In this document: positions 13,434-40,053 of the stretch, in pieces | How the letters are laid out: each line of letters begins with the position of its first letter | How positions within the stretch are numbered: the first letter of the stretch is position 1 | NCBI RefSeq assembly: GCF_008086175.1 | Contig: NZ_VSKM01000005.1 | Span: 124,001 to 188,000 of the forward strand | Length of the DNA stretch: 64,000 nucleotides | Reading direction: 5' to 3' | Source of the DNA: Bizionia saleffrena | Lineage (GTDB): Bacteria; Bacteroidota; Bacteroidia; Flavobacteriales; Flavobacteriaceae | Program-made: the position numbers and the translations under genes | The notes under the pieces: generated by a model | Databases searched by the model: none | What the model was told of the DNA's origin: nothing | What the model saw: the letters and a program-made list of their open reading frames with translations, nothing else

Positions 13434-13552
13434 AAGATGTAATGGTTTATCTAAATGTACGAAAATTAACATAACGTGGATGTTTTTTACTTCATAAATA
13501 AAAGTTAATAACGTCATAAATGTATTATAAAAAACTAAAATTTAAAGTACAT

Positions 13553-36379: not shown

Positions 36380-37651
36380 TTAATCAATAATTGAGAACCC
36401 TGTGTAGGGTATTAAAACCTCAGGAATTTCAATCCCTTTCTCTGTTTGATAATTCTCTAAAATCCCGGCCAAAACACGTGGTAATGCTAAAGAGCTTCCG
36501 TTTAAGGTATGCGCCAATTCGTTTTTACCATCACTATTTTTAAAACGTAATTTTAAACGGTTGGCTTGAAAAGTTTCAAAATTAGAAATACTAGAAATTT
36601 CTAACCAACGATCTTGCGCTGTAGAAAAGACTTCAAAATCGAAGGTAAGTGCCGATGTAAAACCCAAATCACCACCACAAAGTCGTAAAATTCTATACGG
36701 TAATTTTAATTCTTGTAGTAAGTCTTTTACGTGTTCTACCATTCCGTCTAGTGCTTTATAGGAGTTGTCGGGGTGCTCTACGCGCAAAATTTCCACTTTG
36801 TCAAACTGGTGTAATCTATTTAAACCTCTTACATGCGCACCATAACTACCTGCTTCTCGTCTAAAACACGGTGTATATCCCGTAATCCCAACAGGTAACT
36901 CATCGGCATTTAAAACCACATCTCTAAAAATGTTAGTTCCAGGAACTTCGGCTGTTGGAATTAAATACAGATTATCTTCGGTAACGTGGTACATTTGCCC
37001 TTCTTTATCGGGTAATTGTCCAGTACCAAAGGCAGAAGCCTCGTTTACTAAATGAGGCAGTTGATACTCTGTATAACCGGCCGCCGTATTTTTATCTAAA
37101 AAATAAGCGATAAGTGCACGTTGCAAACGCGCCCCTTTCCCTTTATAAACAGGAAAACCAGCACCCGCAATTTTAGTTCCTAATTCGAAATCAATAAGGT
37201 CATATTTTTTTGCCAATTCCCAATGTGGTAACGCGCCATCAAATAAAGTAGGAATAGCACCTTCTCTAAAAATTTCCACATTGTCTTCGTCAGTATTTCC
37301 AGCAGGCACCGTTGCATTGGGTACATTTGGCAAGGTGTAAAGCAAGGCGTTTAACGCCTCGATTTTTGCGTTAAGGGCCTCGTTTAGTGTTTTTGTAGTC
37401 TCTTTAAATTCGCTAGTTTTTGCTTTTAGTCCCTTTGCTTTTTCCGCTTGTCCGGACGTATATAAAACACCAATTTCTTTAGATATCGCGTTCGATTCTG
37501 CTAGGGTGTTATCTAACTCGGTTTGTAAAGCACGGCGCTCTTCATCTAGCACAATTACAGCGTTTACCGTTTCTGTAGCATCAATATTTCGTTTTGCTAA
37601 ACGCGAAATTACAAGCGCTTTGTTTTCTCTAATATAAGGTATTTGTAACAT
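36380..37651 (-). CDS. serS: Seryl-tRNA synthetase
   Basis: 423 residues, class II synthetase. An N-terminal antiparallel coiled-coil arm (about 28-105, rich in Glu, Lys and Ala) contacts the long variable arm of tRNA-Ser. The catalytic domain has motif 2 (FRREAGSYGAHVRGLNRLHQF, about 265-285) and motif 3 (GSSLALPRVLAGILENYQ, about 388-405). Monocistronic with its own terminator; repeat element B lies just upstream of the start codon. Confidence 0.98.
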   Translation of the reverse strand: MLQIPYIRENKALVISRLAKRNIDATETVNAVIVLDEERRALQTELDNTLAESNAISKEIGVLYTSGQAEKAKGLKAKTSEFKETTKTLNEALNAKIEALNALLYTLPNVPNATVPAGNTDEDNVEIFREGAIPTLFDGALPHWELAKKYDLIDFELGTKIAGAGFPVYKGKGARLQRALIAYFLDKNTAAGYTEYQLPHLVNEASAFGTGQLPDKEGQMYHVTEDNLYLIPTAEVPGTNIFRDVVLNADELPVGITGYTPCFRREAGSYGAHVRGLNRLHQFDKVEILRVEHPDNSYKALDGMVEHVKDLLQELKLPYRILRLCGGDLGFTSALTFDFEVFSTAQDRWLEISSISNFETFQANRLKLRFKNSDGKNELAHTLNGSSLALPRVLAGILENYQTEKGIEIPEVLIPYTGFSIID

Positions 37652-37832: not shown

Positions 37833-39143
37833 CTATTTTGATGGCAAAAGCCATTCGTTATGCTTAAACCAGTGCCATTTTACGCTTCCCATATCTATAG
37901 CTGGGTTTATTAACGTTTGGTATGGTTTTCTGTTTACGCTCACTTTGCAGTCAACAAACACAGAAACGTCTTGGCCTTTGGCTTTAAAGTCTTCTTTTAA
38001 ATGTTGAGAAAACTGCCATATAGCATCCGGTTTACTACTCGCTAATCGGGTTTGTTTTGCCGTTAAATAATCGCTTAGATGTATTGCGGTTGTTTCCCCT
38101 GTTTTTTTATCAATCACTCTGTAGCTGGTCATTCCGCTTTTACTTCTTAGCATCATACGCCACGACATTCTGTGGCCTTCTTCTGTCCAGAGGACATCGT
38201 CTTGAATAAAGTGATGTCTAATGGGTAATAGCACCTGGACTACAAAATAAACACTACCAATGGCAAGCAGAATGGGTTTGTAATGAGGTACTATAATTTC
38301 GGCTTTAGTATACGCAGGTTTCTTTTTAAGAAATAGGCGGCGCACCACTTCGGGTTCGAAAAAGAACAATGAAAAGGCTAGCGATAAATACGGAAACACA
38401 CCAACCTGAAAAACTATAGAATTGAATAAGTGAAAGAATATAGACGCAAAAAACGCATATTTTCTAGTCTTTTTAAAGAGCAATAAAGGTATAATTAAAC
38501 CGTCGAATAAAATACCGCCATAAGCTATTAAGTACGGTACAAAGTCGTGTTGTAAGTAAGCGCCAATAATGGGGTAGTTTTTCTTGCCTTCCATTAAAAG
38601 GGTTGGCAATGTTAAATCTAACCAATCCGGATACAGTTTTGCAATAGCGGCGTAGGTGTAGAGAATAAGTAATTGTAAAACAAAGACCCATTTACACCAA
38701 CTTGGCATCGCGAGTTGTTTTAAACTAGGATTTAATTTCACATCTATAGAGGCATATCTATTTGCTGGTAGTGTACACATTATAGCACTCAATAAAATAA
38801 GCAAATAGTAGTGGTTATTGTAAGACGATTTTTGCATAAAATACACCCCACACCAAAGCAATGTAAAGCTTATCATGCTCATTCGGTATTTATAGCCTAC
38901 CATTATTAACAGGCCTAAAAGACCCATTACAAGATAATACACATACATCCAGTTTCCTGGTAAAGGTTGTAGCCATTCGAAACCTATAAACGAAAAGGTG
39001 AACTCAGGTTCTACCAATGTACGGGTTATCCAACCGGTAAAAATAGAACCGACAGATTCTAAGAAAACGAGTAAACCAAAAATAATTCGGAAAACAACTA
39101 ATGCCGAATTATCTATATATTTAAAAAGAAAAGCGTTAAGCAT
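37833..39143 (-). CDS. Vitamin K-dependent gamma-carboxylase homologue (HTTM protein)
   Basis: 436-residue membrane protein. The N-terminal half (about 10-290) has the multi-helix HTTM domain with GWITRTLVEPEFTFSFIGF and PLPGNWMYVYY, close to human GGCX. NNHYYL places His111 at the position of GGCX His160, and YAAIAKLYPDW places Lys169 at GGCX Lys218; the spacing is 58 residues in both. The C-terminal segment (GHRMSWRMMLRSKSG onward) also follows GGCX, but the protein ends where the last roughly 300 human residues begin. Overlaps ribF by eight bases. It could carboxylate or epoxidise with menaquinone; substrate unknown. Confidence 0.85.
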   Translation of the reverse strand: MLNAFLFKYIDNSALVVFRIIFGLLVFLESVGSIFTGWITRTLVEPEFTFSFIGFEWLQPLPGNWMYVYYLVMGLLGLLIMVGYKYRMSMISFTLLWCGVYFMQKSSYNNHYYLLILLSAIMCTLPANRYASIDVKLNPSLKQLAMPSWCKWVFVLQLLILYTYAAIAKLYPDWLDLTLPTLLMEGKKNYPIIGAYLQHDFVPYLIAYGGILFDGLIIPLLLFKKTRKYAFFASIFFHLFNSIVFQVGVFPYLSLAFSLFFFEPEVVRRLFLKKKPAYTKAEIIVPHYKPILLAIGSVYFVVQVLLPIRHHFIQDDVLWTEEGHRMSWRMMLRSKSGMTSYRVIDKKTGETTAIHLSDYLTAKQTRLASSKPDAIWQFSQHLKEDFKAKGQDVSVFVDCKVSVNRKPYQTLINPAIDMGSVKWHWFKHNEWLLPSK

Positions 39144-40053
39144 TTTTGGCTATAAAGTCTAGTGTGTGTTGTTTGTCGCGGTGTAATTGTTCTTTTAAAT
39201 CTTCCACTGAATTGAATTTAATTTCGTCTCGTAATCGGTGTAAGAGTTCTACTTTTAAATGCGCACCGTACAGCGATTCATCTAAATCTAAAAAATGAAC
39301 CTCTATAGTTTGCTTGTCGCCATTTACGGTAGGGTTGTTGCCAATATTCATCATTCCAAAAACGGTTTCCGAATTAATGGTGCTTTGTACAATATAGACC
39401 CCTTTTTTAGGGATGAGTTTATAATTTTCTAATACCTCTAAATTTGCTGTGGGATAATTAATGGTGCGACCTAACCCTTTACCTATAACCACGGTTCCGG
39501 TAAGAAAAAAATTATAACCTAAATAAGTGTTCGCCATAGTAATAGCGCCATCTAGTAACGCTTTTCTTATTTTGGTAGAGCTAACAGCGACATCGTTTAT
39601 GTCTTGTTTAGTAATTTCTTCCACTTCAAAACCATAAATCTTACCAAACGCTTTTAAATCGTTAATGTCGGCGGTTCTGTTTCTTCCAAAATGATGATCG
39701 TATCCTATTATAATATGTTTGGCTTTTAATTCTTTCACTAGAATTTTTTCTACAAAGTCTTCCGCTGTTAATCTAGAGAACTCTTTAGTGAATTCTTTAA
39801 CCACTAATCTGCTAATACCAAATTGTTTTAAGATCGCGGTTTTTTCGGAAATAGAATTAATAAGTTTTAGTCCGGCATCTTTTTGCAATACCATTCTAGG
39901 ATGCGGAAAAAAGGTTAATACGGTAGGCTCTAAATTTTTAATACCACCTATTTTTAAAAGGCGCTGTAAAATTTTCTGATGCCCGATATGTACACCATCA
40001 AAAGTGCCAATGGTGATAACGGTATTATTTTTTAGTGTTTTTAAAGCTTCCAA
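39136..40053 (-). CDS. ribF: Bifunctional riboflavin kinase/FMN adenylyltransferase
   Basis: 305 residues. The N-terminal nucleotidyltransferase domain opens with TIGTFDGVHIGHQKIL (GxHxGH motif) and makes FAD from FMN. The C-terminal flavokinase domain (VIGKGLGRTINYPTANLEV, about 188-206) phosphorylates riboflavin. Length is normal. The stop region overlaps the start of the carboxylase-like gene by eight bases, so the two are probably co-translated. No FMN riboswitch is seen upstream. Confidence 0.97.
   Translation of the reverse strand: MEALKTLKNNTVITIGTFDGVHIGHQKILQRLLKIGGIKNLEPTVLTFFPHPRMVLQKDAGLKLINSISEKTAILKQFGISRLVVKEFTKEFSRLTAEDFVEKILVKELKAKHIIIGYDHHFGRNRTADINDLKAFGKIYGFEVEEITKQDINDVAVSSTKIRKALLDGAITMANTYLGYNFFLTGTVVIGKGLGRTINYPTANLEVLENYKLIPKKGVYIVQSTINSETVFGMMNIGNNPTVNGDKQTIEVHFLDLDESLYGAHLKVELLHRLRDEIKFNSVEDLKEQLHRDKQHTLDFIAKNA

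What the first reader, a model, noticed from the sequence alone, without database searches (positions are those of the whole stretch)
37833..39143. A 436-residue bacterial homologue of vitamin K-dependent gamma-glutamyl carboxylase keeps the active-site His-Lys pair
NNHYYL (His111) and YAAIAKLYPDW (Lys169) align with human GGCX NNHSYL (His160) and AGVKKLDADW (Lys218), and the His-Lys spacing is 58 residues in both. The region after the membrane domain (GHRMSWRMMLRSKSG) also follows GGCX. The last roughly 300 human residues, including propeptide-binding parts, are absent. The residue roles come from my recall of GGCX literature. A flavobacterium makes menaquinone, a possible cosubstrate, but no carboxylated protein partner is visible.
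Basis: partly seen in the sequence, partly recalled or inferred. Interest (0 to 1): 0.6.

Follow-up and report, generated by a model that had tools for sequence, protein, structure and literature searches.

The report
Bacterial relative of vitamin K carboxylase
A marine bacterium carries a membrane protein that looks, down to its active-site residues and fold, like the human enzyme that uses vitamin K to activate clotting factors; what it modifies is unknown, but a sister copy in the same genome sits in a gene cluster that looks iron-controlled.

Summary
Window 39143-37833 (minus strand) is a complete 436-residue gene with both Pfam domains of the vitamin K-dependent carboxylase family. Its AlphaFold model (mean pLDDT 89.3) matches human GGCX along the whole chain (Z 29.6, 424 residues). 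His111 and Lys169 fall on GGCX His160 and Lys218. Both are unchanged in all 159 full-length bacterial relatives aligned, as are the equivalents of Asn159, Trp223, Gly259, Phe286, Phe299 and Trp399. It is an ordinary bacterial member of a known family, kept beside ribF in flavobacteria. Human Tyr395 is His in all 89 members of this sub-type, Lys217 is mostly Ala, and the human part beyond residue 506 is absent. The genome has menA and no VKOR. Best reading: a menaquinol-driven carboxylase/epoxidase acting on an exported, unidentified substrate. Chemistry and substrate are inferred.

New context: a second copy lies in an operon of DUF4856 lipoprotein, imelysin, carboxylase and TonB receptor. Similar surroundings were found at 62 of 80 carboxylase places sampled in Bacteroidota, mostly behind Fur-like boxes, which the window lacks. 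This suggests iron uptake. The imelysins end in Asp-Gly-Asp, but so do proteobacterial relatives with no carboxylase gene annotated nearby, so the tail proves no substrate.

The parts
37833..39143 (-). HTTM/VKGC protein, 436 aa (sub-type A, ribF-linked): homologue of vitamin K-dependent gamma-carboxylase
38349..39125 (-). HTTM transmembrane domain, residues 7-265 (PF05090)
   Evidence: coordinates computed from residue numbers
37839..38279 (-). VKGC lumenal domain, residues 289-435 (PF22777)
   Evidence: coordinates computed from residue numbers
38811..38813 (-). codon of His111 (GGCX His160), conserved in 159 of 159 relatives
   Evidence: coordinates computed
38637..38639 (-). codon of Lys169 (GGCX Lys218, the catalytic base), conserved in 159 of 159 relatives
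   Evidence: coordinates computed
38172..38174 (-). codon of His324, at the place of GGCX Tyr395; His in 89 of 89 ribF-linked members
   Evidence: coordinates computed
39136..40053 (-). ribF (riboflavin kinase/FAD synthase; name from my reading of the sequence, not from a family search), upstream, overlapping by 8 bases; a similar gene lies upstream in 78 of 80 relatives
36380..37651 (-). serS (seryl-tRNA synthetase; name from my reading of the sequence), downstream; a similar gene is on the same strand in 76 of 80 relatives, within 500 bases in 73

Best explanation
A membrane-embedded enzyme of the vitamin K-dependent carboxylase superfamily. Lys169 would deprotonate menaquinol (bacterial vitamin K2) held in the pocket formed by Trp174, Phe237, Phe245 and Phe250. 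Oxygen would turn this into a strong base, giving menaquinone epoxide. His111 and Asn110 would position an acidic side chain presented from the periplasmic side, which is deprotonated and carboxylated with CO2. The substrate is an exported protein or peptide encoded elsewhere in the genome (in trans, as for human GGCX), recognised without the full human propeptide clamp. Shown here: homology, fold, conservation of the catalytic and quinone-pocket residues, a menaquinone gene and no VKOR hit. Inferred: the reaction, the side of the membrane, the substrate.
For: Both Pfam domains. GGCX is the only strong sequence or fold match in the PDB. Equivalents of GGCX Asn159, His160, Lys218, Trp223, Gly259, Phe286, His287, Phe299 and Trp399 are invariant in 159 of 159 full-length relatives. 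In the ribF type the Asn158, Asn290, Met401 and Met402 equivalents are also human-like in 89 of 89. The roles of most of these in quinone and Glu binding are described for human GGCX in PMC12589487. menA is present. A ribF-like gene lies upstream in 78 of 80 relatives.
Against: Tyr395, a Glu contact in human GGCX, is His in 89 of 89 of this type, Lys217 is Ala in 85 of 89, and Arg436 is not conserved. The human part beyond residue 506 is missing. No substrate or dedicated partner was recognised beside the window gene. No VKOR in the own genome, and across 296 genomes VKOR and VKGC co-occur only at chance level (16 observed, 16.8 expected). From memory, unread here: a Leptospira relative was reported to make epoxide but not to carboxylate Glu.
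Confidence: 0.55

Rival explanations
1. Menaquinol epoxidase or oxygen-consuming quinol enzyme without carboxylation: the quinone half of the reaction is kept and the Glu half has been lost or changed.
For: Most quinone-pocket residues and Lys169 are invariant, while the Glu side differs from human (Tyr395 to His, Arg436 not conserved). The human part beyond residue 506 is missing. Precedent recalled, not read here: the Leptospira relative.
Against: His160 and Asn159 equivalents, which contact the substrate Glu in human GGCX, are invariant in 159 of 159; Asn158 is human-like in 89 of 89 of this type.
Confidence: 0.25
2. It carboxylates or otherwise activates a different carbon acid, for instance aspartate side chains or C-terminal Asp tails of lipoproteins, not glutamate.
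For: All 61 imelysins beside the sister enzyme carry an Asp-Gly-Asp end, 60 exactly at the C-terminus. Two relatives in other Bacteroidota genomes (L191, L192) have an upstream DUF4382-like lipoprotein ending in a run of Asp.
Against: The DGD end also occurs in Psychrobacter IPPA and in three proteobacterial plasmid imelysins with no HTTM gene annotated within about 6 kb. In the own genome the DGD and DDD stop patterns hit no other ORF over 50 residues, so this offers no substrate for the window gene.
Confidence: 0.1
3. A non-enzymatic membrane protein that kept the fold, for instance a chaperone or assembly factor.
For: I saw no measured activity for any Bacteroidota member in the passages read here.
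Against: Strict conservation falls on catalytic and quinone-pocket columns over wide sequence divergence.
Confidence: 0.07

Closest known systems
Human gamma-glutamyl carboxylase GGCX (PDB 9wfc, 9wf3, 9l6q, 9bux)
   Same: Fold over human residues 50-506 (9wfc_A: Z 29.6, rmsd 3.2, 424 residues, 28% identity). Catalytic His and Lys and most of the quinone pocket.
   Different: Nothing beyond human residue 506. Tyr395 is His, Lys217 is Ala, the Cys99 and Cys450 places are Phe50 and His381. No substrate known.
Sub-type B bacterial VKGC of the DUF4856-imelysin-VKGC-TonB operon (own genome L083:9441-10826; probably also Riemerella anatipestifer RAYM_09784 in PMC5609570, by its annotation and neighbours)
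   Same: Same two Pfam domains and the same His-Lys pair. 33% identity to the window protein.
   Different: In 62 of 62: Tyr or Phe at the 395 place, Leu at 158, Val at 401. Iron-type operon with Fur-like boxes. The window gene is beside ribF without them.
Leptospira vitamin K-dependent carboxylase homologue
   Same: A bacterial GGCX homologue; its existence is stated in PMC4555120 (passage read).
   Different: Its sequence and context were not examined here; the reported epoxidation without Glu carboxylation is from memory only.
SdpB-type HTTM proteins of Bacillus
   Same: The HTTM model also rings in Bacillus subtilis (control line).
   Different: The VKGC lumenal model rings in none of the 14 control genomes. 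That the Bacillus hit is SdpB is recalled.

Membership tests
Vitamin K-dependent gamma-carboxylase superfamily (HTTM + VKGC lumenal domain) | HTTM domain PF05090 above cut-off | tested here: met
   258 bits against cut-off 27.7
Vitamin K-dependent gamma-carboxylase superfamily (HTTM + VKGC lumenal domain) | VKGC lumenal domain PF22777 above cut-off | tested here: met
   173.3 bits against cut-off 27.7
Vitamin K-dependent gamma-carboxylase superfamily (HTTM + VKGC lumenal domain) | GGCX fold | tested here: met
   Foldseek E 3e-22, the 16 matches at E <= 0.001 all GGCX; VIA-align Z 29.6, best non-GGCX chain 7.7
Vitamin K-dependent gamma-carboxylase superfamily (HTTM + VKGC lumenal domain) | Catalytic Lys218 and His160 | tested here: met
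   Lys169 and His111, by two sequence alignments; 159 of 159 relatives
Functional gamma-glutamyl carboxylase (GGCX orthologue in function) | Tyr395 and Arg436 Glu/substrate contacts | tested here: not met
   His324 and Leu367; 395 is His in 89 of 89 ribF-linked members
Functional gamma-glutamyl carboxylase (GGCX orthologue in function) | Complete two-lobed propeptide clamp and arch domain | tested here: not met
   Model aligns only to human residues 50-506
Functional gamma-glutamyl carboxylase (GGCX orthologue in function) | Vitamin K hydroquinone-dependent epoxidation and Glu carboxylation | not testable with these tools
   needs an assay
Functional gamma-glutamyl carboxylase (GGCX orthologue in function) | Cosubstrate supply (vitamin K quinol) in the organism | tested here: met
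   menA TIGR00751, 272.3 bits against cut-off 102.15; other menaquinone genes and the quinone itself not tested
Functional gamma-glutamyl carboxylase (GGCX orthologue in function) | VKOR for epoxide recycling | tested here: not met
   0 hits in the own genome; 16 of 69 VKGC genomes have one, at chance level

The most novel reading that the evidence does not exclude
Bacteroidota use menaquinol (vitamin K2)-dependent carboxylation as part of iron uptake. Sub-type B, made under iron starvation from an operon behind Fur-like boxes, would install extra carboxylates (gamma-carboxyglutamate or beta-carboxyaspartate) on an imelysin or DUF4856 lipoprotein that hands iron to the TonB receptor. The window gene, sub-type A, would be a constitutive, general-purpose sister acting on other exported proteins.
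Probability: 0.25. Interest if true: 0.85.

Novelty: new member of a known kind. Interest (0 to 1): 0.5.

Why it matters
Vitamin K-dependent carboxylation is known mainly from animals, and the original role of the enzyme is open. The window gene belongs to a conserved bacterial lineage with an intact catalytic core. The sister lineage sits in an iron-type operon with named exported partners, so the question of what bacterial vitamin K carboxylases modify becomes directly testable with one knock-out and one mass-spectrometry experiment.

Tried and rejected
The DGD tail as a carboxylase-specific substrate mark looked strong at first: it was in all 61 in-operon imelysins and absent from 21 of 21 other imelysins examined, L206-L226. 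It was then weakened. Five imelysins with the same tail lie away from VKGC in genomes that do have VKGC (L236-L239 and L242). Psychrobacter IPPA and imelysins on P. aeruginosa, Phaeobacter and Azospirillum plasmids end in DGD with no HTTM gene annotated nearby. It is a mark of that imelysin family. Whether those proteobacteria have VKGC elsewhere was not tested.

A VKGC-specific glutamate in imelysins: own-numbering Glu239 is invariant in 61 of 61 linked sequences and mostly absent elsewhere (1 of 4 proteobacterial, 1 of 21 unlinked, but 4 of 5 in trans). Psychrobacter IPPA also has it, so it is at most a candidate.

VKOR and COX1 as co-occurring markers: VKOR is at chance level. COX1 is found in 69 of 69 carriers but also in 283 of 296 genomes overall, so it says little. 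Acidic C-terminal ends on exported-looking proteins near ribF-type genes: four hits, none convincing, not pursued. Viral contigs: no hit for the sister protein. Relationship to human GGCX on the tree is not resolved (long branch).

Full report
What is there. The gene runs on the minus strand from 39143 to 37833, 436 codons from an ATG; the other strand, read in the one frame printed, is full of stops. It overlaps a ribF-like gene by 8 bases upstream and is followed by a serS-like gene (both names are my reading of the sequences). In one search, 266 stretches of a genome collection encoded a relative and the best 80 were kept (identity 56-89%). Most are Flavobacteriaceae by record title; some are metagenome bins named only Bacteroidia, Bacteroidetes, Bacteroidota or, once (L046), Chlorobiota. 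A ribF-like gene lies upstream in 78 of the 80 and a serS-like gene on the same strand in 76, within 500 bases in 73. The closest is a Bizionia metagenome bin at 89%.

Family and fold. Pfam gives HTTM (residues 7-265) and VKGC_lumenal_dom (289-435), far above cut-off; NCBIfam gives nothing at E 0.001. By sequence the only strong PDB relative is human GGCX. AlphaFold2 on 64 sequences gave mean pLDDT 89.3 and pTM 0.88, weakest at residues about 311-330, which include the linker with the window counterpart of Tyr395. Foldseek's 16 matches at E <= 0.001 are all GGCX. VIA-align gives Z 29.6 over 424 residues, model 1-436 on human 50-506, and the best non-GGCX chain is at 7.7. The human C-terminal part beyond 506 is absent.

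Active site. The residue roles are from the human cryo-EM paper PMC12589487 (parts 1 and 2 of 3 of its text read): Lys218 is the base; Asn159, His160 and Tyr395 hold the substrate Glu; Asn158 and Arg436 hold the backbone; Trp223, Phe286, Phe294, Phe299, Val210, His160 and Met401 hold the quinone ring; Lys217 couples to the second lobe. I aligned 159 full-length bacterial sequences (89 ribF-linked, 62 imelysin-linked, 8 other; the two pieces of one broken gene were dropped) with the human segments. Invariant in all 159: the equivalents of Asn159, His160, Lys218, Trp223, Gly259, Phe286, His287, Phe299 and Trp399. In the window protein these are Asn110, His111, Lys169, Trp174, Gly210, Phe237, His238, Phe250 and Trp328. 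Against a human-like Glu site: Tyr395 is His in 89 of 89 ribF-linked members, Lys217 is Ala in 85, and Arg436 is not conserved. For it: Asn158, Asn290, Met401 and Met402 are human-like in 89 of 89. The imelysin-linked type is the mirror image in 62 of 62: Tyr (50) or Phe (12) at 395, but Leu at 158, Thr at 290 and Val at 401.

Cosubstrate and recycling. menA is present. No VKOR hit in the own genome. Over 296 Bacteroidota genomes VKGC is in 69, VKOR in 72, both in 16, with 16.8 expected. A VKOR-based vitamin K cycle is therefore not a regular part of the bacterial system.

A second copy and its operon. The own genome has two HTTM hits at E <= 0.01. The other (L083:9441-10826, 33% identical) lies in a run of four same-strand genes: DUF4856, imelysin (Peptidase_M75), HTTM/VKGC, TonB-dependent receptor. 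The first two look like lipoproteins (Cys conserved in a signal-like start). I fetched the surroundings of all 80 VKGC places (cut short at contig ends in some) and scored them with profiles built from the own genes (recount). In 62 of 80 a similar TonB receptor lies close by, in 61 an imelysin, in 54 a DUF4856-like gene, some of these by weak scores. Eleven are ribF-linked, all in genomes that one search lists as the same family as the window's. Seven have neither context. At genome level 62 of 69 VKGC carriers have an imelysin against 9 of 227 others (lineages are not independent, so the p-value there overstates). On the tree the imelysin type is one cluster holding one stray without that context, and the ribF type clusters with a Persicobacter plasmid copy and two copies (L021, L077) without detected ribF.

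Iron control. PMC5609570 (passage and the Table 4 section read) lists the Riemerella anatipestifer TonB receptor, vitamin K-dependent gamma-carboxylase, imelysin and hypothetical gene (RAYM_09779, 09784, 09789, 09794) among putative Fur-regulated genes, with iron-limited/iron-replete ratios of 2.11, 2.64, 3.07 and 2.41 in wild type. Against simple Fur control, the iron response persists without fur (2.70, 2.77, 2.92, 3.07), and the delta-fur/wild-type ratios in iron-replete medium are only 1.90, 1.39, 1.93 and 1.36. So iron regulation is shown there, and Fur as the agent is weaker. The Fur box predicted in that paper occurs with one mismatch 85 bases upstream of the own DUF4856 gene (3 matches in L083, two of them one place on both strands, with 0.07 expected by chance) and not in the window at up to 3 mismatches. 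Within 300 bases upstream of DUF4856, 47 of 52 operons examined have a match with at most 4 mismatches, against 0 of 52 shuffled, 0 of 52 upstream of the operon-internal TonB gene, and 2 of 89 upstream of ribF. The sister copy thus looks iron-regulated and the window gene does not.

Partners and the DGD tail. Of 61 in-operon imelysins, 60 end exactly in Asp-Gly-Asp and one (L183) has one further Ser; 21 of 21 other imelysins examined do not. But the tail also marks related imelysins without a neighbouring carboxylase. I therefore do not claim it as the substrate. [quoted passage not shown] the words carboxylase and HTTM have no occurrence in its main text. My inference is that in Bacteroidota VKGC can take that neighbour's place.

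How it most likely works. See Best explanation. The fold and residues say quinol-driven base chemistry at the membrane. The missing human C-terminal part says substrate recognition differs. The lack of a recognisable neighbour says the substrate of the window gene is probably encoded elsewhere. Topology was taken from GGCX and not tested.

Is it in print? In the rows listed by the searches (an open-access library only; several searches had more hits than were listed) I saw no paper that studies this operon or a Bacteroidota carboxylase; the Riemerella table is the only co-mention of imelysin and this carboxylase that I saw. PMC4555120 states that Leptospira interrogans has a glutamyl carboxylase homologue (passage read). 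Pfam already holds the family, so the window gene is a new member of a known kind.

Noticed in passing
L083:7034-13365 (own genome G000:C11): Operon DUF4856, imelysin, second HTTM/VKGC, TonB receptor, with a Fur-like box upstream (13451-13469, 1 mismatch).
   Followed up: yes
L083:10885-12033 and 60 further in-operon imelysins: C-terminal Asp-Gly-Asp in all (one with a further Ser); also present in proteobacterial IPPA-type imelysins. 'DGD' does not occur in the main text of the imelysin paper PMC3143127.
   Followed up: yes
L191:5107-5832 and L192:5220-5936: DUF4382-like lipoproteins (just under Pfam's cut-off) ending in 10 or more Asp, directly upstream of VKGC genes.
   Followed up: partly
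L192:6028-7476: VKGC gene split into two ORFs (300 and 175 aa), likely broken or a sequencing error.
   Followed up: no
L074:6001-7320 and L080:6001-7320: Two ribF-type VKGC proteins themselves end in HEDGD and HEDED.
   Followed up: no
L247:7923-9314 (Paracoccus albus plasmid p1): Alphaproteobacterial VKGC relative beside a DUF393 gene, no imelysin annotated within about 8 kb.
   Followed up: partly
L249:4237-9350 (Persicobacter psychrovividus plasmid pPP1): Mixed layout: irpA-like imelysin, a 483-residue protein (di-haem oxidoreductase suspected, not tested), DGD-ending imelysin, VKGC.
   Followed up: partly
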